Virus record (IMG/VR): IMGVR_UViG_3300005910_000019
Span: 1 to 32,715 of that record
DNA from: a virus
Direction: 5' to 3' (one strand)
Length of the DNA stretch: 32,715 bases
Of the stretch, positions 11,122-24,293 are shown piece by piece. Each line of letters starts with the position of its first letter. The first letter of the stretch is position 1. The translations under genes were made by a program, and so were the position numbers. The notes under the pieces were generated by a model. That model saw only the letters and a program-made list of their open reading frames with translations. It did not search any database and was not told where the DNA came from.

Positions 11122-12117
11122 TTAAAAAATACGCATTTCTTTTTTTCTAATTCTATTAAGATAAATTCTTGCTAACCCTTGTGAAAAGGCATCGCAGAAA
11201 TCATCATGTGCTACTGCTGGGAATTTAAGTAGGTCTTCAAGAACATCGTCTAACCATGCATACTTTCGTATTTCTAAAGAAGTACTATTTCCTGGTAGTG
11301 ATACATTACCCGCTTCTACATAAACTGCAACCGATGACATTCTTGAATACTTGTCACCCATTGGGTTAACTGGTAGAATTCCAGGAAGCTGATCCTTCAA
11401 CGTATCTATAACCGCTGGACCGTTTGCTTTATCCTCTACTAATATCTCTATAGGTATCTTTCTACCTAATGCTTGTACTATATCATTCCATTTTTCATAC
11501 ATCGCATCTACTGCTTGTAGTGTTTGTGTAAATGATAGATTCTGTTTATACTTATCAACTAGCTGCGTCGTAACGCCGTCTGTTAAAAATACGGCACACG
11601 CTACATAATCGTTGTTTTCTTTTCCTTTAAATGACATATCCCAAGAATGAACTATCCAAAGTTCCTTTTCCTGTTTGTCCTTTTGGTGGTAAAGAAGAGT
11701 ATGCCAACTTTTGAACCAGTCTCTGTTTAGCACTGCTCCTTGTTCTGGCGATGGATCTTGTAAATATTGAGCATTAAAGGTTCTTATACCTTGCTCGGTT
11801 ACTGTTTGATCTAACCATTTTTTGTCCATTCTAGCTGGCCATAAAACATTATCTTTTGTCATTTTCCAAACTGTTCCAGACAATGGTCCAACAAATGTCA
11901 AAGTATCAACCGTCTGTACTGGCATTACTATGAATTTGTAAAATGGGTAATTCTCTTTTATAAAACCACTAACGTCACTAAAGTGTAGACGTTGTTGGAT
12001 ATTAACAATAATACCTGTGTTAAAGTTGTTAAGTCTAGATGGCAGCGTATTTCTTAAGAAGTTAATTGCTGTCTTTCTATCTGCTTCTGATTCTGCTTGT
12101 TTAGGATTTTGAATATC
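11122..12117 (-). CDS. terL: Terminase large subunit, exon 2 (C-terminal ATPase part and nuclease)
   Basis: The frame continues the terminase after removal of the group I intron. It begins at GAT ATT CAA (DIQNPKQAESEADR), which completes the Walker B acidic pair when joined to exon 1 (LLD|DIQNP). It includes TGIIVNIQQRLHFSDVSG (motif C region with the coupling residues) and the RNase H-like nuclease with WDMSFK, LVEDKANGPAVI and a final HDDFCDAF. The first ATG in this stretch (11925) is internal and has no ribosome site, so the stretch is not a separate gene. Joined with exon 1 the protein has about 528 residues, normal for the family. Confidence 0.9.
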   Translation of the reverse strand, partial: DIQNPKQAESEADRKTAINFLRNTLPSRLNNFNTGIIVNIQQRLHFSDVSGFIKENYPFYKFIVMPVQTVDTLTFVGPLSGTVWKMTKDNVLWPARMDKKWLDQTVTEQGIRTFNAQYLQDPSPEQGAVLNRDWFKSWHTLLYHQKDKQEKELWIVHSWDMSFKGKENNDYVACAVFLTDGVTTQLVDKYKQNLSFTQTLQAVDAMYEKWNDIVQALGRKIPIEILVEDKANGPAVIDTLKDQLPGILPVNPMGDKYSRMSSVAVYVEAGNVSLPGNSTSLEIRKYAWLDDVLEDLLKFPAVAHDDFCDAFSQGLARIYLNRIRKKEMRIF

Positions 12118-13093
12118 CGTATTTATCCATACTTTAATATGGTACTGACTATATCTTCAACCTATAAGGTTGTTATGCGCTTCCATACGTGCTAATTATC
12201 GTATGTACTCCCGTTAGGGATAGTCGATTGACCTTTAAGAAGCCTTATATTGAAACTTTATATTTCCTTTAATAACATTGTGTTTTATTCTATACCAGAT
12301 TGTTGCACGATTTATCCCTGTTTGTTCTGCGGCATCTGTTAATCCACGAAACTCTTGTGTGCTTCCGCATTGTGTGTTTATCATCTGTACAATCTCTGTA
12401 TTATACGTATTATATTTTAAAAGATTACTCATGTAACTGTTATGATCAATAGAATGTTTTCTACCTCGCATACCGTTAGTTTTTAAACGCGCGGCACTTA
12501 TCTTTTTATTATGTGCAGCTGTGTTATGGCATCCTTTACGATTATTTGAATAATTGACTAAACTATTTTCTGCTCTTATCTTGGCATTCTTTCTTTTTAT
12601 AGCCGTCCATTCAAAAGTCTGTCCACCTTGTCCTCCTATAGTTATATTATAACCATTTGGAGCAATCGTATTGTGCTTCTCTATATTAGAGATTTCCAGC
12701 GAGTTTAAATTATCTTCTAGGCATTCATATAATACCTCTACAGTGAAATTATTCCATCCATATTTATTAATAGATAAATATAATGGGGTTTTCCTGTTTT
12801 TAATATTATTCTTATGCTCTTTTATTCTACGTGCTATATTTATACTTTGACCAATATAACTTTTATTTGTAATGTTATTTGTGAGTTTATAAATTCCAAT
12901 CATATTAACTCCAAACTTGGCACCGGATTGTCTTAGATTTCTCCTTAGATTTCCCGGTTAGCCATAACTTATTTTTTTTTTCATGTTATGACACCGCTTT
13001 TGCTTGCGTTCACATAATATTACATGCAATGTTACCATTACACTAGACATATTTCTCTTTTTGTTTTTATGCGGGAGAGGTGAGATAATCTTT
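12118..13093 (-). mobile_element. Group I intron (td-like, IA2 type) in the terminase gene
   Basis: A 976-base intron. Core elements resemble the T4 td intron: GACAATCCGGTGCCAAG (12932-12916), CGACTATCCC and GGGAGTA around 12226-12205, and GAAGATATAGTC (12158-12147), which forms P7 with GACTATC. Exon 1 ends TTAGAT and pairs with an internal guide GTCTAG (13048-13043), with the required U-G wobble at the splice site; the adjacent AATAT (13053-13049) pairs with exon 2 bases ATATT as P10. The intron ends in G. Removing it joins LLD to DIQNP in frame. The exact 5' splice site is an inference from P1/P10 and protein continuity. Confidence 0.88.
12235..12903 (-). CDS. GIY-YIG homing endonuclease in the group I intron
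   Basis: A 222-residue protein. Residues 2-90 are the GIY-YIG nuclease domain: GIYKLTN and SYIGQS give the name motifs, R26 in the following helix and E/N residues near 75 complete the active site, and NGYNITIGGQGG follows. The middle has a basic, NUMOD3-like stretch (GRKHSIDHNSYMS), and the C-terminus has a helix-turn-helix (FRGLTDAAEQTGINRATIWYR) of the intron-endonuclease repeat type that binds the target. It lies between the P4-side element and P7 of the intron, looped out of the ribozyme core. It would spread the intron to intron-less terminase genes. Confidence 0.92.
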   Translation of the reverse strand: MIGIYKLTNNITNKSYIGQSINIARRIKEHKNNIKNRKTPLYLSINKYGWNNFTVEVLYECLEDNLNSLEISNIEKHNTIAPNGYNITIGGQGGQTFEWTAIKRKNAKIRAENSLVNYSNNRKGCHNTAAHNKKISAARLKTNGMRGRKHSIDHNSYMSNLLKYNTYNTEIVQMINTQCGSTQEFRGLTDAAEQTGINRATIWYRIKHNVIKGNIKFQYKAS

Positions 13094-13684
13094 ATCTAAT
13101 AAGATGATATCCGCTCCCTTACCCGTTAATGTACCTCCAACTGATGTTGCAAACATTGAACCTCTTTGTTCATTCTCAAAGTACGTCTTAGTATTTTGAT
13201 CGTCTGAGATTTTTATTTTGTTTCCCCAACGCTCTATAAACCAATCACTTTGAATAATATTTCTACGTTTCTTATTTAACTCGATTGATAAATCAACTGA
13301 GTATGAAACCGTTATGAATTGAACTGATGGATCGTGTATCCAAACCCAACATGGAAAAAATACATTAAAAAATAATGACTTCATAGTTCTAGGAGGTACA
13401 TTTAAGCACACCCTTCTCTTGAGTTCATGTTCTTTAAGTTGTTCAATCCTCTCTTGTGGGATATCAACAATATCTTCAATTCTATCTAACACTAGCAGCA
13501 TAAGTTCTTCTTCTAAATACGCTAAATGCCAGTTGTCTATAAATTCGGTTCCTGGCTCTACTACATGCCAAGCCTGTTTAGCAAATTCTAATAAACTCTT
13601 TTCAGCCAATAGCTTTTCAAGTAACCGTTCTCCTCCGGGTTGCTGTAACATTGCTATTAGTTCGTCATTATTCTGCATTTGCAT
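13094..13684 (-). CDS. terL: Terminase large subunit, exon 1 (N-terminal ATPase)
   Basis: 197 codons encode the N-terminal ATPase half of the packaging motor. Walker A is CLNVPPRTMKS around residue 95-105, preceded by the adenine-binding region (FIDNWHLAYLEEEL). Motif 'TVSYSVDLSIELNKKRR' and GTLTGKGADIILLD (start of Walker B) follow. Without splicing the frame would read a few further codons (KDYLTSPA) to a stop in the intron. It overlaps the small terminase gene by 17 bases, so the two are translationally coupled. Confidence 0.92.
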
Positions 13685-14638: not shown

Positions 14639-14667
14639 TTGACAAATGTTTAGTAATATGTTATACT
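14639..14667 (+). promoter_or_regulatory. Rightward promoter of the Ro-like gene
   Basis: TTGACA at 14639-14644, 17 bases, TATACT at 14662-14667. It is the only strong promoter seen ahead of the Ro-like gene; none was seen immediately ahead of the RNA array, so the array may be transcribed from here too. Confidence 0.85.
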
Positions 14668-14717: not shown

Positions 14718-16256
14718 ATGAATTACGTAGAAGCACTACAAAAACAAGGAGCAACAGCAGTTAACACAAAGGGAGGAATTTACTCTAGTAATACTTTAGA
14801 TGCGAATCTAAATTTATTTGCTAGCACCTTTAGACAGTTGCCAGATGATGAGATCGCGTTACTATTTGCGAACGCATACTCGGAAGATAAAATTCTTGCT
14901 ACACAAAATCTATTAAGCATTATGGATATTCGTGGAGGTAAAGGAGAAAGACATGCGACTAAAGCGCTATTGAAGAAAATCATTTCAGTGGATAAAAATG
15001 TTGCAAAAAACATAATTCCAATCATTGGAGACTTAGCTAGATATGATTACATTTTAGAATATATGGAAACATCTCTTGAAAGAGAGGTTATTTCGTACAT
15101 AGCAACTAAGATCAACGAAGATGTGGAAAAAATAGCTAATAATGAACAAGGTATTAGTTTAATAGGTAAGTGGTTACCTAGTTTAAGAACGCATAAAAAA
15201 GATAATCCAGTGGCGAAGAAACTAGCTATTGCTTTATTCAGCGGAGTAGAAGAAAAAGGATCTGCATTTAAACAATACAGAAAGACGTTGAAATCTCTTA
15301 GAGATGCAATTAAAATTGTAGAAACATTAATCACAAATAAACAATATGACAAAGTTAATTACGAAACAGTTCCAACTAAAGCAATGCTTAAATACAGAGC
15401 GGCTTTCGAGAAAAACGATTTAGAAAAATATAGAAGTTTCCTAGATGCGGTTTCTGTTGGAGAAAAGAAAATAAATACACAAGGTTTATTCTGTTATGAT
15501 ATAATCAGAAAGATATTAACAGGAGAATACGGAGGATCATGGAACTACGATGGTCTAATAGCATCAGATGGTATGTCAGATGAAGAACGACTACTATTCA
15601 ACAACATGTGGGAAAACCAACTTGATATTCTTGATGGCGACGCTAGAAATATATTAGCGATAGCAGATACATCAGGATCAATGACAGGTGGAGAATATAT
15701 ACCAATGTCAACAAGTGTGGGACTAGCTTTATATTTAGCTGAAAGAAACACAGGTTATTTTAAAGATTATTTCATGACTTTTGATGATGACCCACAATTC
15801 CACAAAGTAACAGGTTTAGATATAGTAGACAAAGTAAAAAACATTCAGTCAATAGTTGGAACAACAGACGTTGATAAAGCGTTTAAATTACTTTTAGATA
15901 CAGCAGTAACAAACAAAGTTAGCCAAGAAGAAATACCAAGTCATGTTATTTTAATAAGTGATATGGAATTTGATCAAGGAACAAGCTCAAAAGGCGGAAC
16001 TAATTTTGACGGTTGGAAAAGAACATTCGAGGCAGCTGGCTACACATTACCGATAATCATATTCTGGAATGTGTCATCTTACACAGGTGGTTATCCAGTT
16101 ACCAAATTCGAAAAAGATGTAGTGATGATCTCAGGATACTCTACAAACATCTTTAAGAATATCCTTAATTTAGAAAGATTTACGCCGGTTTCGGCGATGC
16201 AGGAAAGCCTAGCTAAGTATTTAGAGCTGGCTGAAGAACTGCATAAATTAAAATAA
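14718..16256 (+). CDS. Ro60-like RNA-binding protein (DUF2828/TROVE-like plus vWA)
   Basis: A 512-residue protein. The N-terminal ~300 residues are helical and match the DUF2828 pattern, a relative of the TROVE ring of Ro60: LFANAYSEDKILATQNLL, IRGGKGERHATK, LIGKWLPSLRTH, then YRKTLKSLRDAIKIVE and VPTKAMLKY. The C-terminal part is a von Willebrand A domain with a full MIDAS start, DTSGSM at residues 317-322, a GTTDVDKAF segment carrying the middle Thr, and ISDMEFD with the third Asp (about residue 414). Ro60 binds Y RNAs on its outer surface and ends of misfolded RNA in its central hole. The start has GGAGGGG 8 bases upstream. Directly after it lies an array of six structured RNAs, one with a tRNA mimic. 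RNA binding is inferred from family and context. Confidence 0.88.
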   Translation: MNYVEALQKQGATAVNTKGGIYSSNTLDANLNLFASTFRQLPDDEIALLFANAYSEDKILATQNLLSIMDIRGGKGERHATKALLKKIISVDKNVAKNIIPIIGDLARYDYILEYMETSLEREVISYIATKINEDVEKIANNEQGISLIGKWLPSLRTHKKDNPVAKKLAIALFSGVEEKGSAFKQYRKTLKSLRDAIKIVETLITNKQYDKVNYETVPTKAMLKYRAAFEKNDLEKYRSFLDAVSVGEKKINTQGLFCYDIIRKILTGEYGGSWNYDGLIASDGMSDEERLLFNNMWENQLDILDGDARNILAIADTSGSMTGGEYIPMSTSVGLALYLAERNTGYFKDYFMTFDDDPQFHKVTGLDIVDKVKNIQSIVGTTDVDKAFKLLLDTAVTNKVSQEEIPSHVILISDMEFDQGTSSKGGTNFDGWKRTFEAAGYTLPIIIFWNVSSYTGGYPVTKFEKDVVMISGYSTNIFKNILNLERFTPVSAMQESLAKYLELAEELHKLK

Positions 16257-16257
16257 C

Positions 16258-16458
16258 ATGAGCACTATAGAAAGAAAAAAAGTATTAGTACTTTATCTAA
16301 AATGGCTAAATGAAACCAACCCTCATTGCAAATCATTTAATACTTTCATAAAAAACGTACATCAATGTGAGTGCGGAGCCATTGTGCATAAAGAATTTTG
16401 TTTCTTTCACAATCAAGTAGCGTTATGCGAAAAATGCTTCTTAGATAAATATATTTAA
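16258..16458 (+). CDS. Small Cys-rich, zinc-ribbon-like protein
   Basis: A 66-residue protein starting one base after the Ro-like stop, hence probably translated by coupling. The N-terminal half is helical and basic (MSTIERKKVLVLYLKWLNE). The C-terminal half has CxC, a further Cys and two His, then CxxC (HQCECGAIVH...CFFHNQ...CEKCF), enough to bind one or two zinc ions. Family not recognised. The stop overlaps the upstream flank of the first RNA unit, so translation could affect the folding of that RNA. Confidence 0.72.
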   Translation: MSTIERKKVLVLYLKWLNETNPHCKSFNTFIKNVHQCECGAIVHKEFCFFHNQVALCEKCFLDKYI

Positions 16459-16464
16459 TAATAT

Positions 16465-16576
16465 GACTCTTACAGCAAACCAAAAATTGACCTTGTAAGT
16501 CCGAAGTCGTGGGTTCAAGTCCCACCATTCCCGCATGGGAGTGTAGCTCAGTTGGTAGAGCGCGAAATAACGAGTC
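16465..16576 (+). ncRNA. Y-RNA-like unit 1 with a circularly permuted tRNA (anticodon UGU)
   Basis: The unit opens GACTC-TTACAGCAA and closes with GAGTC (16572-16576); flanking AATAAT and ATTATT extend the stem. Inside is a complete tRNA in permuted order. The 3' part comes first: positions 29-73 at 16489-16533, with anticodon loop CUUGUAA, AAGTC variable region, T arm GTGGG-TTCAAGT-CCCAC and acceptor strand CATTCCC. After a GCAT loop the 5' part follows: 1-28 at 16537-16564, acceptor GGGAGTG, TA, D arm GCTC-AGTTGGTA-GAGC, G, CG. All four stems pair completely: acceptor 7 bp with one G-U, D 4, anticodon 5, T 5. The break is between 28 and 29. A closed acceptor and missing CCA argue against a normal tRNA and for a tRNA-mimic Y RNA. 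Confidence 0.85.
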
Positions 16577-16601
16577 ACGTATTATTTAAAATAAAAAATT
16601 T

Positions 16602-16653
16602 GACCCTTACAGCAATTAAAAAACCCCTTTCAATGGAGAAAATATTACGGGTC
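16602..16653 (+). ncRNA. Y-RNA-like unit 2 (short)
   Basis: 52 bases. GACCC-TTACAGCAA at the start and GGGTC at 16649-16653 form the closing stem; the variable base pair is C-G here. The interior is A-rich with a short possible hairpin (TTTC / GAAA). No tRNA-like part. Confidence 0.68.
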
Positions 16654-16666
16654 TAGTACTATTAAT

Positions 16667-16731
16667 GACACACACAGCAAACTCACCCCTTAAAAGAATA
16701 TAAGACGCGGGAGTAAGACTCCCACCGTGTC
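16667..16731 (+). ncRNA. Y-RNA-like unit 3
   Basis: 65 bases. GACAC-ACACAGCAA pairs with GTGTC at 16727-16731, and flanking AT/AT extends the stem to ATGACAC/GTGTCAT. The interior ends in a perfect 6-bp hairpin, GGGAGT-AAG-ACTCCC (16709-16723), immediately before the closing strand. Confidence 0.72.
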
Positions 16732-16759
16732 ATGTTAAAACAAGAATAAATCTAATTAA

Positions 16760-16828
16760 GACACATACAGCAACCCAAAATGGTTAAGCTCTTTAAAAGG
16801 CGCTAGGTTCAATCCCTAAAAGCGTGTC
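16760..16828 (+). ncRNA. Y-RNA-like unit 4 with T-arm-like hairpin
   Basis: 69 bases. GACAC-ATACAGCAA pairs with GTGTC at 16824-16828; CTAATTAA upstream and TTAATTAG downstream lengthen the stem with a small bulge. The interior contains TAGG-TTCAATC-CCTA, whose 7-base loop fits the tRNA T-loop consensus, and a D-arm-like hairpin (AGC...AACC-CAAAAT-GGTT...GCT). It may be a degenerate tRNA mimic. It does not fold as a standard tRNA because the acceptor strands mismatch. Confidence 0.7.
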
Positions 16829-16852
16829 TAGATTAATTAGAATATAAAAAAA

Positions 16853-17070
16853 GACACATACAGCAATCATCCTATACTTAGGAGAAAGCATCTAAAAGAT
16901 GACTTACAGTTGGTACCCTCCGGGGTACAAAACAAATGTATTTATTGGGCTCGACCCAATGAGGTGACGTACGACCTAGATGTACGAGGGAGCATATTCC
17001 CATAAGTATGCAGGCGTCCTTGTGGCCTACACGAGGAGGGACGTTGCGGACCCTGAATCCGCACGGTGTC
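16853..17070 (+). ncRNA. Y-RNA-like unit 5, long and highly structured (218 nt)
   Basis: GACAC-ATACAGCAA pairs with GTGTC at 17066-17070, and AA/TT outside extends the stem to 7 pairs. The interior has at least eight hairpins. Examples are CATCT/AGATG (16889-16901), GTACCC/GGGTAC (16913-16928), ATTGGG/CCCAAT (16944-16960), CGTAC/GTACG (16968-16986), GCATA/TATGC (16992-17011), CGTCC/GGACG enclosing TTGTG/CACGA (17015-17043), and GCGGA/TCCGC with a 7-base loop (17046-17062). It is more GC-rich than its surroundings. No known RNA family was recognised. The stable stems and the absence of a plausible protein on either strand mark it as a structured RNA. Confidence 0.75.
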
Positions 17071-17095
17071 TTGTTATTTTTAAAAATTATTTTGC

Positions 17096-17152
17096 GACAC
17101 ACACAGCAAACAACAAAAAAACTTACTTCTAACTAAGTTCCCTTCCAGTGTC
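17096..17152 (+). ncRNA. Y-RNA-like unit 6 (short)
   Basis: 57 bases. GACAC-ACACAGCAA pairs with GTGTC at 17148-17152, and GC/GC outside gives a 7-bp stem GCGACAC/GTGTCGC. One interior hairpin, ACTTA/TAAGT. It ends 23 bases before the next gene; no terminator follows, so the array may be cut from a longer transcript. Confidence 0.72.
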
Positions 17153-17175
17153 GCGATAAAAAAAGGTGTGATTAA

Positions 17176-17694: not shown

Positions 17695-17928
17695 ATGGAA
17701 CAAAAACAAATTGATACTTTATATTATGAAATAAAAGACTGTCTAGATTTTGTTATAATGCTGGGAGATTTAAAAAGCACTGGTGTATTACATGACAGAG
17801 ATCCAGACATAGACTCTTTTATATACAGAGACATAGCAGAAAAATTAACAGCAAAGTACGCACATTTAAACATAGGCATAGATTATGACAATGAATATGT
17901 CTTCTATGATTTTACAAGGGAGGGATAA
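17695..17928 (+). CDS. Small acidic hypothetical protein
   Basis: 77 residues, rich in Asp, Tyr and Ile (MEQKQIDTLYYEIKDCLDFV...YDNEYVFYDFTREG). The ATG at 17695 is chosen because GAGGTGA lies just upstream; the frame can be extended to a GTG at 17686 inside that ribosome site. Not recognised. It is the leading gene of the RNA ligase operon; its stop overlaps the ribosome site region of the ligase gene. Confidence 0.65.
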   Translation: MEQKQIDTLYYEIKDCLDFVIMLGDLKSTGVLHDRDPDIDSFIYRDIAEKLTAKYAHLNIGIDYDNEYVFYDFTREG

Positions 17929-17929
17929 C

Positions 17930-18817
17930 ATGAATATTAAAATGTATCCAAAGATAAGACGACCTGATAATTCTACTATAAATTTCAATCCTGGAGACAT
18001 GGTTGTTATTCAAGAGAAGATCGATGGTAGTAATGTAACTATTTATAAAGCAGACGACAAAATAAGATACTTTAGTAGAAACCACGAACTAGTAGAGGAT
18101 GATAAGGATTTTAAAAGATTCTTAACATATATCAAAACCAAAGAAGAAAAACTTCTTAGTTTAATGGATAATAATACAGCCATATTTGGTGAATTTTTAA
18201 GCATGGGTAAAATTGGCTACAACACATTAGCTAAGAATGAGAAGATATCTTGTTTTTATGTTTTCGACGTGGCTGATAGTGTTAAGATAGATGAAGAGGG
18301 CGTGAGAGCAGTTGAATTCGCTAACCCCATAGTAGCAGAATCATTCGCGGTGCTTTGTGGTTTAGATTTCGTTCCTGTGTTGGCACAACAAGAGTTCCAA
18401 ACATACGCAGCTATTAAGAAGTCATTTGTAGAAGATATGCCATCATGCTTAGATAACACTTTCAATAGAGAGGGCGTTGTGATTAAAAGCGTTGATGATC
18501 CGAATACTAGATTAAAGATAGTAGCCGATAAATTTGCTGAAATTAAACCAAAAAGAATGGATAAAAAGAATCCTTTAGAATTCATTACTTGTTACATGAC
18601 AGAAGGAAGAATAGAGAAGTTCTTAACTGAGTTAAACCTTGAGGATAGATCTCCTGAACAATACGGAGTTGTGTTTAAAAATGTTCAACTATTAGTTGAC
18701 GACATCTTTGAAGAAGAAAGTGCACAAATACAAAAAGATTTAGAAAAAGCAGCAAGAAAAGCATCAATAGGAAAAATAAAAAATTATCTTGAAAAAGAGG
18801 TTGACAAAGAACTGTAA
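17930..18817 (+). CDS. RNA ligase, Rnl2 family
   Basis: A 295-residue ATP-dependent RNA ligase that joins 3'-OH and 5'-phosphate RNA ends. Nucleotidyltransferase motifs are in order: motif I EKIDGSN with the adenylated Lys at residue 30, the following SRN (49-51), motif III FGEF (86-89), IIIa FYVFDV (109-114), motif IV REGVVIK (180-186), and motif V LKIVADKF (195-202). A helical C-terminal part (about 220-295) follows, as in T4 Rnl2 (334 residues). The ATG at 17930 is chosen for the GGGAGGG 7 bases upstream; the frame reaches back to 17885 but would overlap the previous gene. Placed just after the Ro-like gene and RNA array, it could seal or repair RNAs bound by Ro. The nick-sealing substrate is unknown. 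Confidence 0.92.
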   Translation: MNIKMYPKIRRPDNSTINFNPGDMVVIQEKIDGSNVTIYKADDKIRYFSRNHELVEDDKDFKRFLTYIKTKEEKLLSLMDNNTAIFGEFLSMGKIGYNTLAKNEKISCFYVFDVADSVKIDEEGVRAVEFANPIVAESFAVLCGLDFVPVLAQQEFQTYAAIKKSFVEDMPSCLDNTFNREGVVIKSVDDPNTRLKIVADKFAEIKPKRMDKKNPLEFITCYMTEGRIEKFLTELNLEDRSPEQYGVVFKNVQLLVDDIFEEESAQIQKDLEKAARKASIGKIKNYLEKEVDKEL

Positions 18818-20173: not shown

Positions 20174-20765
20174 ATTTCAAGAAAGATACATTAACTACCA
20201 AGAACGAAAGAAAGATATTGAAGGAAACACTGAACATACTCCAACTAATTATAAGACAATGGATTGGCTTGTTTTTAAAGCGGTAATGGAAACAAGAAGA
20301 AGTCAAAGGTCTTTTAAAAAAGGACACATAGAAGAAGACGTGTTTAATGAGATATTAGAATCAGCAAGGGTTGCACCGTCTAGTTGTAATAGACAAGCTA
20401 TCTACATAAAGGAGACCGACACTGAGTTCGCAGAACGCATGTTAGTTGGCGCTCGTGGGTGGATTAAAGGTGCCGACAGGGTTTTACTGCTGTTTGGAGA
20501 CAAGATAGCATACAAGAGCCCAGCGGAGAAAGACTTTATGCCTTTCTTAGATGCAGGTTTCGTAGGACAAAATATGTACCTAATGTGTGAAGTATTAGGA
20601 GTAGGATGTTGTTTTGTAAACCCAAATATAATAGAAGAAAACAAAAAAGAGTTCGTTGAAAAATACGGAGATGATTATTTCTGTGGTGCTATTGCATTAG
20701 GTAGATATGACAAAAAACAAAAACCGAATAAGTTAAGAGACTTAAGTAAGGTGATGAGAAAATAA
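20160..20765 (+). CDS. Nitroreductase-like flavoprotein
   Basis: A 201-residue protein. After a ~35-residue extra N-terminus it shows the nitroreductase signature: METRRSQRSFKKGHI (FMN phosphate-binding Arg residues) and ILESARVAPSSCNRQ, then a central region LDAGFVGQNMYLMCEVLGVGCCFVNP and a final AIALGRYDKKQKP. Members bind FMN and use NAD(P)H to reduce many small molecules. Its role in a phage is unclear; it is joined to the glycosyltransferase downstream (the TAA and ATG share one base), so the two may act together, for example in a surface or nucleotide modification pathway. It overlaps the HAD gene by 14 bases. Confidence 0.8.
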   Translation: MYKDEFQERYINYQERKKDIEGNTEHTPTNYKTMDWLVFKAVMETRRSQRSFKKGHIEEDVFNEILESARVAPSSCNRQAIYIKETDTEFAERMLVGARGWIKGADRVLLLFGDKIAYKSPAEKDFMPFLDAGFVGQNMYLMCEVLGVGCCFVNPNIIEENKKEFVEKYGDDYFCGAIALGRYDKKQKPNKLRDLSKVMRK

Positions 20766-22987
20766 TGGATATAGCAATTATTGGAGTAGCCACTCGTGGT
20801 TACGGTAAATTTGTAGAACAATGGTTAGATGGAATATTATGTCAACACGTAAAACCAAGGGAAATAATTTTGGTATTAGGTTTTGGACACAGCACCACTA
20901 AAGAAACACTTAAAAAATTAAAAAAGAATAAAGTTAAAATAATAATGGAAAAAAGGGATTTAACTCTTGGAACATTATTAAACAAGGCTTTATATAAAGC
21001 AAAAAGCAAATGGGTTTTAAGAGTAGACATAGATGATGTCTTACTACCTATTGCGCTAGAAGAAGTAAAAAAGAAATACGATACAGTAGATGCAGTAGCA
21101 CTTAAATTTAAACTTGGAGACACTATAAAAGACTCTCCAATTGTAGATATTAACAAGCTTAATTGCTGTAAAAAAGACTTTAATGAGTCAGGTTATGTTG
21201 CAAATAAAATAAAACACGGGAAAGATATACTATATTATGAGGACAATGATTTTCCTAACTTTCCATATTTATTTTACCTAGCTAGCAAAGGATTTAAATT
21301 TTGTGGGACTGATAATGTATGTGTTGAGTATAATCAAGATGCACAAAGTCAAGAAACATTTTTAAAAGCAAGACCGAATAGAAAAGTTGCTCATGACATC
21401 ATTGATACAGCAGCAATGAAATACAGAGTACACCCAATAATACTAACTATAATGGTTACAATGTATAATAGTGAGGATTTAATATTAAGAAGTCTGAAGA
21501 GCATAGAGTTAAGAGAAGACGTTGAAGTAATAATGATTGATGATTGTTCTGTTGACAATACAGCTAAAATAGCAAAACAATGGATGGACGATAACCCAAA
21601 TAAGAACATTAGCTTTTACCAAAATAATGTAAATAAAGGTTCTGGGGCAACAATGAATGTTGGGTACAACAATTTCAAAGGGGAGTATATAATGATACTT
21701 TGTGATGATGATTATCTAATAGAACCACTAAGTAGTTATATACCATTTTTAGATGGCACAGATTTAGTTTACTATGACCTAGTTACCAATACTGGTAGTG
21801 TGTGGGATGGTACAAAACTTTCAGGTTCTTCTAAAGCATTTAAAAGAAGTATAATAGGAGACACAAGAAGAATAGACCAAAACTTTGGCGGTGATAAAGT
21901 ATTTTATAAAGAAATACTCGCTAAACGACCAACCAAAAAAACATCTAGACTTAGTTTATACCACTACAACTATCCTAGAAAGGGAAGTCAAATGGATTTA
22001 TGGAAAAGCAACGCAGAAGAGGTTGTGTTCTCGCAATACATGGACATAACAATATTTACAATAGCATATAATGGTTATGGTAGATACTTACCAACATGGA
22101 TACTTAACATGAGACGACAATTAGTAACACCTAAAAAAGTAGTTATTGTTTTAGGCAAGAACCATGGGGCTGATTTAGAAGCAATGGAAGCAAGCTTTGG
22201 TTTTTTAGATCACAAAATAATATTCTCTGAAAGTGATAACATGGGAGAACTAAGGAACGAAGCTGTAAGGGTAATAGATACAGAGTGGCAGTTATATTTT
22301 AGTGCTGATGATAAGTTGTTACCAAATGCAGTACAAGAGATACAAAAACAGTCAAATGACTTTGATGCAGTAGCGCTTAGATTTATGGACGTACAATTAG
22401 ACGGCAAAGCAATTGAAAGTTATAGTATGATAGTTGAACCACGTAAAATGTTCTTTTGGAAAACAATAGAGCCTGTTCCTGGATATATCGCAGTTAAGCA
22501 TAAATGGGATGGAGAAGTATTATATTACGACGAGGACTTAGAAGTTCCTAACGTTTCTTATCTATTCAAATTAGCATATTTAGGGCTACGTATTACGGAA
22601 ACAGCAAGAAAAGAAACTGTAAACAAAGAACTTAGATTTGAGCCAATAGATAACAAAATAGACACTGGCAAAAAGGTGTTTAACGAGTGTGCTATATACA
22701 CAAGAAGAAGAGGAAGCCACGGAGATAAGGCAGCAATAAACAAAGATTATCTTATACTTAGAGCAGACTTAGATGTGTATGCAACCCTTTACTTTAACCT
22801 ATGGTTAGAAAAATTAGAGAAGCAAGGAATTGAAAAAATTTGTGTTATGGCGCTATTCCCATTCACGGATAGAAAAACAGGTATATTTTATGATAAAGAA
22901 GAAGTATTCGATGCATCAATAGAATTTATAAGAAATATAACTAAAGAGAGAAAAAGATTGATAGGAATAATTAACACTTTCCAATAA
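20765..22987 (+). CDS. Glycosyltransferase with three tandem GT-A-like domains
   Basis: A 740-residue protein. Domain 1 (about 1-210) begins IAIIGVATRGYGKFVEQWL and has a VLRVDIDDVLLP acidic metal site. Domain 2 (about 220-400) is a canonical GT2: IMVTMYNSEDLILRSL, IDDCSVDNTAKIA, GSGATMNVGYNN and a LCDDDYL DxD-like motif. Domain 3 (about 425-700) resembles domain 1: MDITIFTIAYNGYGRYLPTWI, VLGKNHG, MGELRNEAV and YFSADDKLLP. Tandem GT-A domains occur in enzymes that build polysaccharides processively or transfer several sugars. In a phage the acceptor might be DNA, a virion protein or host wall. No membrane segment or signal is visible. Confidence 0.82.
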   Translation: MDIAIIGVATRGYGKFVEQWLDGILCQHVKPREIILVLGFGHSTTKETLKKLKKNKVKIIMEKRDLTLGTLLNKALYKAKSKWVLRVDIDDVLLPIALEEVKKKYDTVDAVALKFKLGDTIKDSPIVDINKLNCCKKDFNESGYVANKIKHGKDILYYEDNDFPNFPYLFYLASKGFKFCGTDNVCVEYNQDAQSQETFLKARPNRKVAHDIIDTAAMKYRVHPIILTIMVTMYNSEDLILRSLKSIELREDVEVIMIDDCSVDNTAKIAKQWMDDNPNKNISFYQNNVNKGSGATMNVGYNNFKGEYIMILCDDDYLIEPLSSYIPFLDGTDLVYYDLVTNTGSVWDGTKLSGSSKAFKRSIIGDTRRIDQNFGGDKVFYKEILAKRPTKKTSRLSLYHYNYPRKGSQMDLWKSNAEEVVFSQYMDITIFTIAYNGYGRYLPTWILNMRRQLVTPKKVVIVLGKNHGADLEAMEASFGFLDHKIIFSESDNMGELRNEAVRVIDTEWQLYFSADDKLLPNAVQEIQKQSNDFDAVALRFMDVQLDGKAIESYSMIVEPRKMFFWKTIEPVPGYIAVKHKWDGEVLYYDEDLEVPNVSYLFKLAYLGLRITETARKETVNKELRFEPIDNKIDTGKKVFNECAIYTRRRGSHGDKAAINKDYLILRADLDVYATLYFNLWLEKLEKQGIEKICVMALFPFTDRKTGIFYDKEEVFDASIEFIRNITKERKRLIGIINTFQ

Positions 22988-23013: not shown

Positions 23014-23769
23014 ATGACAGCAACTAAAGATGTATTTTTTGTACTAGACACATTTAAAACAGAGTTAGAGGATAGAGGGTATAAGGTTCTGTATTTAGGA
23101 CTATATGGTTCTCAAAACTATAACCTACATGATAAAGAAAGTGATATTGATTGTAAAGCAATTATAATGCCATCACTACACGACATTATCTTTAGAAACA
23201 CAGTTAGTACAACGATAAACACAGAGTATGGAGACATAGATGTAAAAGATCTAGTTACTTTCTACAGCGTTATAAGGAAAGGTAACTTTAGTTACATAGA
23301 AGCAATGGCTACAAAATACTGGATAGGGAATCAAGCTATTAAAGACATGTTAGGTGGTTACGAAGTTAACTTAAAAAGTGTGGTAGGAGCGGCGCATGAA
23401 AAAAGAAAAGCAATGCTTCATGAATACCCAAGCAAAAAGAAAGAGTTTAAGAAATTTGGGTATGATCCAAAACAACTGCATCATATATTAAGACTTAACC
23501 ATATACTTGACAGTTTAGTATACTTAGGTGGCACATCTGCGTACATTACGTACGATGATGGTGATCCTGTCAAGAACTTCTTACTTACCTTAAAAAGAGG
23601 TACTAACGATACGATTGACACAGTAGAAAAGGCTGTTGACATGGCTGATGATATTATAGGTCAAATGAAAGAGCATTTACCAGATGATTATAAGTTTATA
23701 CCAACCGACGAGACTGAAGAGATTAGTTCTTTTATAGAAAACGAAATAGTAGAGGATTTAAAACAATGA
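23014..23769 (+). CDS. RlaP-like nucleotidyltransferase (pol-beta fold)
   Basis: A 251-residue protein. GLYGSQNYNLHDKESDIDCK (residues 29-48) is the pol-beta nucleotidyltransferase core: GS motif, then SDxD with two metal-binding Asp (44 and 46), and a third acidic residue in YGDIDVKDL near 75. The YxL between GS and SD and the later basic helical part (AAHEKRKAMLHEYP, LHHILRLNHILDSLVYL) match the RlaP family (RNA ligase-associated pol-beta), common in phages beside RNA repair genes. With the RNA ligase in this window this suggests modification or repair of RNA ends. The gene overlaps the phosphoesterase gene by four bases (ATGA). Confidence 0.82.
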   Translation: MTATKDVFFVLDTFKTELEDRGYKVLYLGLYGSQNYNLHDKESDIDCKAIIMPSLHDIIFRNTVSTTINTEYGDIDVKDLVTFYSVIRKGNFSYIEAMATKYWIGNQAIKDMLGGYEVNLKSVVGAAHEKRKAMLHEYPSKKKEFKKFGYDPKQLHHILRLNHILDSLVYLGGTSAYITYDDGDPVKNFLLTLKRGTNDTIDTVEKAVDMADDIIGQMKEHLPDDYKFIPTDETEEISSFIENEIVEDLKQ

Positions 23770-24293
23770 AGTATTACACAAGTGACTTGCACTTAGGTCA
23801 CGCTAATATAATAGAATATGAGAATAGACCTTTCAAAACAGTGGAAGAAATGGATCAAGCGCTTATAAACAATTGGAATAACAAGGTTAAAAAAGGAGAC
23901 GTAGTTTATATACTTGGAGACTTCGCTTTTTATAAAGAAGGAAAAAAGGTTAATAAAATATTACGCAAATTGAACGGACAGAAACATCTTATAAAAGGGA
24001 ATCATGATTACTTTCTAAAAGACAAAGAATTTGATGAGACCTTATTTGTTTCTGTATCCGATTACAAAGAAGTAAAAGACACAGGAGAAAGAGTTGTTCT
24101 ATTCCATTACCCAATAGCAGTATGGAACGGGCAGCATCATGATGTTATTCATTTATACGGACACATACATGGAAATCAAAATACAGAACATCCGCTTGAC
24201 ATTGCGCTAGAAAAAGCGTATAATGTAGGTGTAGATGTCAACAGCTTTGAGCCAGCAAGTTTAGATGAATTACTCGAGGTTCAAAATGGCTAA
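23766..24293 (+). CDS. Metallophosphoesterase (calcineurin-like)
   Basis: A 175-residue enzyme with a complete two-metal site: DLHLGH (Asp7, His9), GDFAFY, KGNHD, FHYPIAVW and YGHIHGN. It belongs to the small phage/bacterial phosphoesterases. Members remove phosphates or open cyclic phosphates on nucleotides or RNA ends. The four-base overlap with the nucleotidyltransferase and the presence of an RNA ligase make an RNA end-processing role reasonable but unproven. Confidence 0.9.
   Translation: MKYYTSDLHLGHANIIEYENRPFKTVEEMDQALINNWNNKVKKGDVVYILGDFAFYKEGKKVNKILRKLNGQKHLIKGNHDYFLKDKEFDETLFVSVSDYKEVKDTGERVVLFHYPIAVWNGQHHDVIHLYGHIHGNQNTEHPLDIALEKAYNVGVDVNSFEPASLDELLEVQNG

What the first reader, a model, noticed from the sequence alone, without database searches (positions are those of the whole stretch)
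14718..17152. Phage Ro60-like protein followed by an array of six Y-RNA-like RNAs
Seen directly: a DUF2828/TROVE-like protein with vWA MIDAS (DTSGSM) is followed by six RNA units. All start GACnC-n-YACAGCAA and are closed by GnGTC. Known: bacterial and some phage Ro60 genes are accompanied by Y RNAs, with an end-closing stem that binds Ro and a second part that often mimics tRNA. Inference: this is a Ro/Y-RNA system based on a DUF2828 protein, with far more RNAs than the one or two usually reported. The shared YACAGCAA next to the closing stem would be the protein recognition element. I did not see a previously described RNA family with this signature.
Basis: partly seen in the sequence, partly recalled or inferred. 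Interest (0 to 1): 0.93.

Follow-up and report, generated by a model that had tools for sequence, protein, structure and literature searches.

The report
Phage Ro-like protein with tRNA-mimic RNAs
A virus of bacteria carries a relative of the human Ro60 autoantigen next to six small RNAs; the same protein-RNA pairing turns up in many phages and gut bacteria, the RNAs often imitate pieces of transfer RNA, and they share their signature with a mysterious RNA class of social amoebae.

Summary
Confirmed and larger than claimed. The 512-aa protein is DUF2828+DUF7788 by sequence, and its predicted structure matches Ro60 best among solved structures. Downstream lie six units: a terminal stem of up to 7 bp, two bases, ACAGCAA, an interior of 33-199 nt, the 3' strand, then G. 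None reaches an Rfam threshold. The signature is widespread: beside DUF2828 genes, same-strand units outnumber opposite-strand ones 98:1 in viral contigs and 137:1 in bacterial genomes. It occurs in Bacillus, Listeria, Staphylococcus, Felix O1, Campylobacter, Aeromonas, Klebsiella and mycobacterial phages. A covariance model finds it in 12 of the 14 DUF2828-bearing genomes among 245. Interiors are strongly enriched in tRNA anticodon-arm and T-arm hairpins; unit 1 is a permuted tRNA like YrlA. In phage GAP32 the units lie in a tRNA cluster 200 kb from the gene, which implies action in trans. Rfam's Dictyostelium Class I RNA model picks out these same phage units. Best reading: a new branch of Ro/Y-RNA particles presenting tRNA-arm mimics, probably for tRNA repair or as decoys against tRNA-cutting defences. 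Binding, expression and function are inferred, not shown.

The parts
14639..14667 (+). promoter-like site TTGACA-17-TATACT upstream of the Ro-like gene
   Evidence: 11 of 12 consensus bases; the total number of sites in the region is at chance level
14718..16256 (+). Ro60-like DUF2828/DUF7788 protein, helical N-terminal region plus vWA domain with intact MIDAS
16258..16458 (+). 66-aa protein with CxC and CxxC, possible zinc ribbon, directly after the Ro-like gene; conserved in the 74% relative L009
   Evidence: no family match
16463..16579 (+). RNA unit 1: stem TGACTC/GAGTCA, core ACAGCAA, interior = permuted tRNA (T arm, closed acceptor stem, D arm) as in YrlA
16600..16656 (+). RNA unit 2: short AU-rich unit; matches the covariance model R1 and weakly Dictyostelium Class I RNA
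16665..16734 (+). RNA unit 3: 7-bp stem, degenerate T-arm-like hairpin inside
16758..16831 (+). RNA unit 4: T-arm hairpin CTAGG-TTCAATC-CCTAA inside; matches model R1
16851..17073 (+). RNA unit 5: 223 nt, 7-bp stem, several strong hairpins inside
17094..17155 (+). RNA unit 6: 7-bp stem, anticodon-arm-like hairpin ACTTA-CTTCTAAC-TAAGT (one base too long in the loop); matches model R1
   Evidence: hairpin read from the sequence, not the minimum-energy fold
17885..18817 (+). ATP-dependent RNA ligase downstream, a possible functional partner
   Evidence: (PF09414, 3.8e-24)

Best explanation
The locus encodes a Ro60-fold RNA-binding protein and a family of trans-acting small RNAs that it holds. Shown: the gene is consistently paired with RNA units made of a co-varying terminal stem, an ACAGCAA element beside the 5' strand and a 3' G, while the interior is free to vary and is often a tRNA anticodon arm, a T arm, a permuted tRNA or a tRNA body. 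Inferred: the protein binds the stem plus ACAGCAA, and the interior is the working end. Most likely the particle presents tRNA-arm mimics. These would act either as decoys for host nucleases that cut tRNA anticodon loops, or as adapters that bring damaged tRNA or tRNA-repair enzymes (RNA ligase, RtcB, kinase) to the Ro ring. This would protect translation during infection.
For: Pairing: 98 vs 1 and 137 vs 1 units on the same vs opposite strand within 3 kb. Of 245 genomes of one order, 14 have DUF2828, 15 have the RNA and 12 have both (Fisher p about 5e-16). Held-out named phages are hit, mostly next to the gene. A protein-independent pattern scan returns units whose bases outside the pattern also pair, and 14 of the 17 such records over 60 kb carry the protein. 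Structure: one search shows 7 of 7 pairs with double changes; the 3' G is present in 239 of 262 although not selected for. Ro fold. tRNA mimicry: 57 anticodon-arm hairpins in 250 units not overlapping tRNA genes vs 8.1 in shuffles, 40 with a loop identical to a real tRNA loop vs 1.9; T arms 28 vs 0.4; YrlA-like unit 1. Trans action: GAP32 units sit in gaps of a tRNA cluster 200 kb from the gene. RNA-repair neighbours: RNA ligase in the window, RtcB in Listeria LP-048, RNA ligase in GAP32 and Aeromonas LAh_8.
Against: No transcript or binding data. TROVE profile not matched. The Ro match has TM 0.57 and a large rmsd. Units with perfect stems were found in 40 of 75 viral loci (52 with one core mismatch), so not every DUF2828 locus has them nearby. 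Three long records have units without a detected DUF2828 gene (G004, G025, G041), and no TROVE gene was found in G041 or G025. Many interiors are not recognisably tRNA-like. Selecting units on their stems makes 100% pairing true by construction. Repair and decoy roles are inferred from neighbours and mimicry only.
Confidence: 0.72

Rival explanations
1. The units are cis-regulatory leader elements through which the protein represses its own mRNA, not free RNAs.
For: In bacterial genomes most units lie within 1 kb upstream of the gene and the last one often ends about 30 nt before it.
Against: In the window and in several phages they are downstream; in GAP32 they are 200 kb away; interiors differ and mimic different tRNA arms.
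Confidence: 0.1
2. An ordinary member of the known bacterial Rsr/YrlA system.
For: Unit 1 is YrlA-like; the fold is Ro60.
Against: TROVE does not match in any of 58 homologues. YrlA is below its gathering score in unit 1 and not reported for the other five. The ACAGCAA element is not part of the YrlA consensus shown.
Confidence: 0.07
3. Decayed tRNA genes or tRNA-island debris, kept by chance near a gene that travels with tRNA clusters.
For: tRNA-like pieces and frequent tRNA clusters nearby.
Against: A conserved core and a co-varying terminal stem unrelated to tRNA; strict same-strand placement.
Confidence: 0.03
4. A type III toxin-antitoxin or abortive system with repeated antitoxin RNAs.
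For: RNA array next to one protein gene; an overexpressed Ro-like protein of mycobacteriophage LeBron is toxic (PMC13148394).
Against: Ro60 fold, no nuclease fold found; units differ in sequence, unlike tandem antitoxin repeats; no PADLOC match for the protein.
Confidence: 0.05

Closest known systems
Ro60 / bacterial Rsr (TROVE family)
   Same: overall fold, vWA with MIDAS, RNA partners encoded next to the gene, link to RNA-repair genes (as in the Salmonella rsr-yrlBA-rtcBA operon, PMC7790460)
   Different: no TROVE profile match; DUF2828/DUF7788 sequence family; arrays of up to 7 RNAs with an ACAGCAA element
YrlA Y-like RNA (RF02553)
   Same: end-closing stem plus permuted tRNA-like domain in unit 1
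   Different: 38.6 bits against a gathering score of 69; other units carry single tRNA arms or no tRNA part; different element next to the stem
Dictyostelium Class I RNA (RF01414; PMC7919456)
   Same: about 60 nt, multicopy, variable co-varying terminal stem, (CCUU)ACAGCAA beside the 5' strand, AG start and CUGU-type end, variable interior; the Rfam model's best hits in phage genomes are these units
   Different: eukaryotic; below the gathering score (best 31.8 vs 41.5 bits); linker one base longer; known binder is the RRM protein Rnp1A; no Ro partner known to me
Phage 'Ro-like RNA binding protein' annotations (phrog_850)
   Same: same protein family
   Different: no RNA partner found described in the papers available here

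Membership tests
Ro60/Rsr (TROVE) | TROVE sequence profile PF05731 | tested here: not met
   DUF2828 and DUF7788 in all 58 members, VWA in some, TROVE in none
Ro60/Rsr (TROVE) | Ro60 fold over the whole chain | tested here: met
   the five best PDB matches are all Ro60, E 4.7e-8 to 2.6e-5
Ro60/Rsr (TROVE) | vWA domain with MIDAS | tested here: met
   D317, S319, S321, T383, D415 invariant
Ro60/Rsr (TROVE) | binds Y RNA | not testable with these tools
   association only
YrlA (RF02553) | score above the gathering threshold | tested here: not met
   38.6 of 69 bits in unit 1, none listed for the others
YrlA (RF02553) | permuted T arm - closed acceptor - D arm | tested here: met
   alignment; unit 1 only
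Dictyostelium Class I RNA (RF01414) | score above the gathering threshold | tested here: not met
   best 31.8 of 41.5 bits
Dictyostelium Class I RNA (RF01414) | variable terminal stem, ACAGCAA next to the 5' strand, conserved 3' UG | tested here: met
Dictyostelium Class I RNA (RF01414) | partner protein of the DUF2828 or Ro type in dictyostelids | not tested
   no eukaryotic genomes available here
tRNA | complete tRNA gene | tested here: not met
   none in the window; 12 of 262 units elsewhere overlap a predicted tRNA

The most novel reading that the evidence does not exclude
DUF2828 proteins are a second, ancient Ro lineage with its own RNA class, shared by phages, bacteria and social amoebae. 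Dictyostelium Class I RNAs would be the amoebal members, held by a Ro-type protein, and the phage RNAs a modular set of tRNA-arm mimics that shield or repair tRNA during infection.
Probability: 0.4. Interest if true: 0.96.

Novelty: new variant of a known kind. Interest (0 to 1): 0.9.

Why it matters
It gives an RNA partner to a large protein family that Pfam still lists as unknown and that is present in 665 records of the phage collection, including well-studied phages such as Felix O1. It extends Ro/Y biology to a separate branch with a clear candidate recognition element that can be tested at once. The isolated anticodon arms suggest that phages display parts of tRNA on a Ro particle, a possible counter to tRNA-cleaving defences. 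The match to Dictyostelium Class I RNAs would make the open question of their core protein partner and origin directly testable.

Tried and rejected
T4 stable RNAs rnaC and rnaD were checked as possible members: no motif there; the one RF01414 hit in T4 at 132052-132103 contains ACAGCAA but was not hit by R1. Rfam drum RNA in L029 does not overlap a unit. TROVE as the partner in records that have units but no DUF2828: none. The three genomes with R1 hits but no DUF2828 gave no DUF2828 near the hit; three is about what E <= 0.01 over 245 genomes gives by chance. Many raw pattern hits in enterobacterial prophages are copies of one sequence that lacks the outer pairs, probably coding, not units. 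A close-relative protein search found only one relative; an alignment was needed. A consensus promoter/terminator scan was uninformative for the array itself. A second interior class (TTGG..GAA) is only weakly enriched. The 2011 paper on Class I binding proteins and the Ro60 review were not held.

Full report
Observation. The six units are present on the + strand, 0.2-0.9 kb downstream of the protein gene. Each has a terminal stem, two bases, ACAGCAA, an interior of 33 to 199 nt, the complementary strand, and a G. The protein is 512 aa. Pfam sees DUF2828 and DUF7788 and PHROGs sees phrog_850 'RNA-binding protein' at 1.6e-103. No Rfam family reaches its gathering score in the window and no tRNA gene is predicted.

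The protein is Ro-like. An AlphaFold model from 58 homologues has mean pLDDT 90.6. Among 350,542 PDB chains the five best matches are all Ro60, covering the whole length, with E-values of 4.7e-8 to 2.6e-5; isolated vWA domains follow. By sequence no homologue matches TROVE, so it is a Ro relative by fold and not a member of the TROVE sequence family. The metal-site residues D317, S319, S321, T383 and D415 are invariant.

The RNA units recur. A 74% identical relative ends, at its contig edge, in GACTCACACAGCAAA at the same place. In named phages the units sit beside the gene: Bacillus vB_BcoS-136 (7) and PJN02, Listeria LP-048 (3), Staphylococcus SEP9 (3), Enterococcus phages, Felix O1 (4), mycobacteriophage Krypton555 (3), Campylobacter Los1 (2), Aeromonas LAh_8 and Klebsiella KP13-16. 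From 75 viral and 80 bacterial-genome loci, units with a fully paired 7-bp stem and a 3' G lie on the gene's strand 98 and 137 times within 3 kb, and once each on the other strand. Permuting the heptamer drops counts about eight- to eleven-fold on average.

Independence from selection. Calling units by their stems biases pairing statistics, so four checks avoid it. Of the 17 such records over 60 kb, 14 carry phrog_850. Second, the G after the stem is present in 239 of 262 units. Third, a covariance model built from 36 units finds units in named phages that were not used to build it, mostly next to the gene. Fourth, among 245 genomes of one bacterial order DUF2828 occurs in 14 and the model hits 15, with 12 in common, on the same contig and strand within a few kb (p about 5e-16). 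Some training loci may come from this order, so that test is not fully held out. All seven stem pairs show changes on both sides.

The RNAs probably act in trans. In bacteria many units lie just upstream of the gene, which could suggest a leader. But the window array is downstream, Felix O1 units are interspersed with tRNA genes, and in GAP32 the units are at 310.5-311.9 kb, in gaps of a tRNA-rich cluster, while the gene is at 106 kb.

The interiors imitate tRNA. In 262 units near the gene, hairpins with a 5-bp stem and T-loop sequence occur in 28 against 0.4 in shuffles. Excluding T loops and units that overlap predicted tRNA genes, 57 anticodon-arm hairpins occur against 8.1, and 40 of them carry a 7-nt loop identical to that of a real tRNA in the collected loci, against 1.9 expected. 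Examples are tttgaCTGTTAAtcaaa (Asn), tcgggCTCATAAcccga (Met) and cctgtCTTGAAAacagg (Ser), each identical over 17 bases to an arm of a predicted tRNA. Some interiors are tRNA bodies without a normal acceptor end (L175, L178), and window unit 1 is the permuted tRNA known from YrlA. Many interiors have no recognisable tRNA part.

Relation to Dictyostelium Class I RNA. That class was reported only from social amoebae (PMC7919456). It has about 60 nt, a variable co-varying end stem, an unpaired 11-nt motif beside the 5' strand (CCUUACAGCAA in the Rfam consensus printed), and ends AAG and CUGU. Rfam's model of it, run over 23 complete or partial phage records, gives 26 hits at E <= 0.05. All but two (T4 132052, and a core-less site in G033) are units of the kind described here, the best being Vibrio XZ1 AAGTAATCTTACAGCAA...GGATTACTGT at 31.8 bits, E 4.4e-5. 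None reaches the family threshold of 41.5 bits. The likeness may be common descent or convergence on a shared type of protein site; dictyostelid proteins could not be searched here.

Mechanism. Inferred, not shown: the protein holds the stem plus ACAGCAA and the interior is displayed. Neighbours point to tRNA damage: RNA ligase and a weak nucleotidyltransferase match in the window, RtcB in LP-048, RNA ligase in GAP32 and LAh_8. In Salmonella, Rsr and YrlA are in an operon with RtcBA that responds to tRNA cut in the anticodon loop, and its authors suggested that YrlA could competitively inhibit that nuclease (PMC7790460). Isolated anticodon arms with several different anticodons fit a decoy or repair-adapter role best. 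I give the protein-RNA particle about 0.85, the tRNA-protection role about 0.5, and the statement as a whole 0.72.

Novelty. Ro/Y particles are known, phage Ro-like annotations are known, and ROT/TROVE in jumbo phages has been linked to RNA repair (PMC7824862). Not found in Rfam or the searchable papers are the ACAGCAA RNA family in phages and bacteria, its tie to DUF2828, the modular tRNA arms, and the bridge to Class I RNA. Preprints and most subscription journals were not searchable.

Noticed in passing
window 16258-16458: 66-aa Cys-rich protein (CxC, CxxC) starts directly after the Ro-like stop codon and is conserved in L009; could be a third part of the system.
   Followed up: partly
window 17885-18817, 23014-23769, 23766-24293: RNA ligase, nucleotidyltransferase with a weak RlaP (RNA repair) match, and metallophosphoesterase-like protein: a possible RNA-repair set near the array.
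   Followed up: partly
window 11122-13684 (- strand): Reading frames that look like the two halves of the large terminase are separated by an ORF with a GIY-YIG-like start (12235-12903), as if an intron or homing element sits there.
   Followed up: no
window 20765-22987: 740-aa protein that appears to hold several glycosyltransferase-like segments.
   Followed up: no
L029 7558-8229 and 12269-12780; L015 1460-2011: Giant non-coding RNAs ROOL and GOLLD occur in the same phage regions as the units (ROOL below its threshold in Listeria LP-048).
   Followed up: no
L341 9702-11582 (- strand), record G041: At least four units in a 192-kb phage record with no detectable DUF2828 or TROVE gene; the partner may be missing, diverged or host-borne.
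   Followed up: partly
short unit interiors, e.g. L175, L200, L354: A second interior class with TTGG..GAA (9 vs 2.6 in shuffles) that is not a tRNA arm.
   Followed up: partly
window 16851-17073: Unit 5 is unusually long (223 nt, about -80 kcal/mol) with many hairpins; its interior matches no Rfam family.
   Followed up: no
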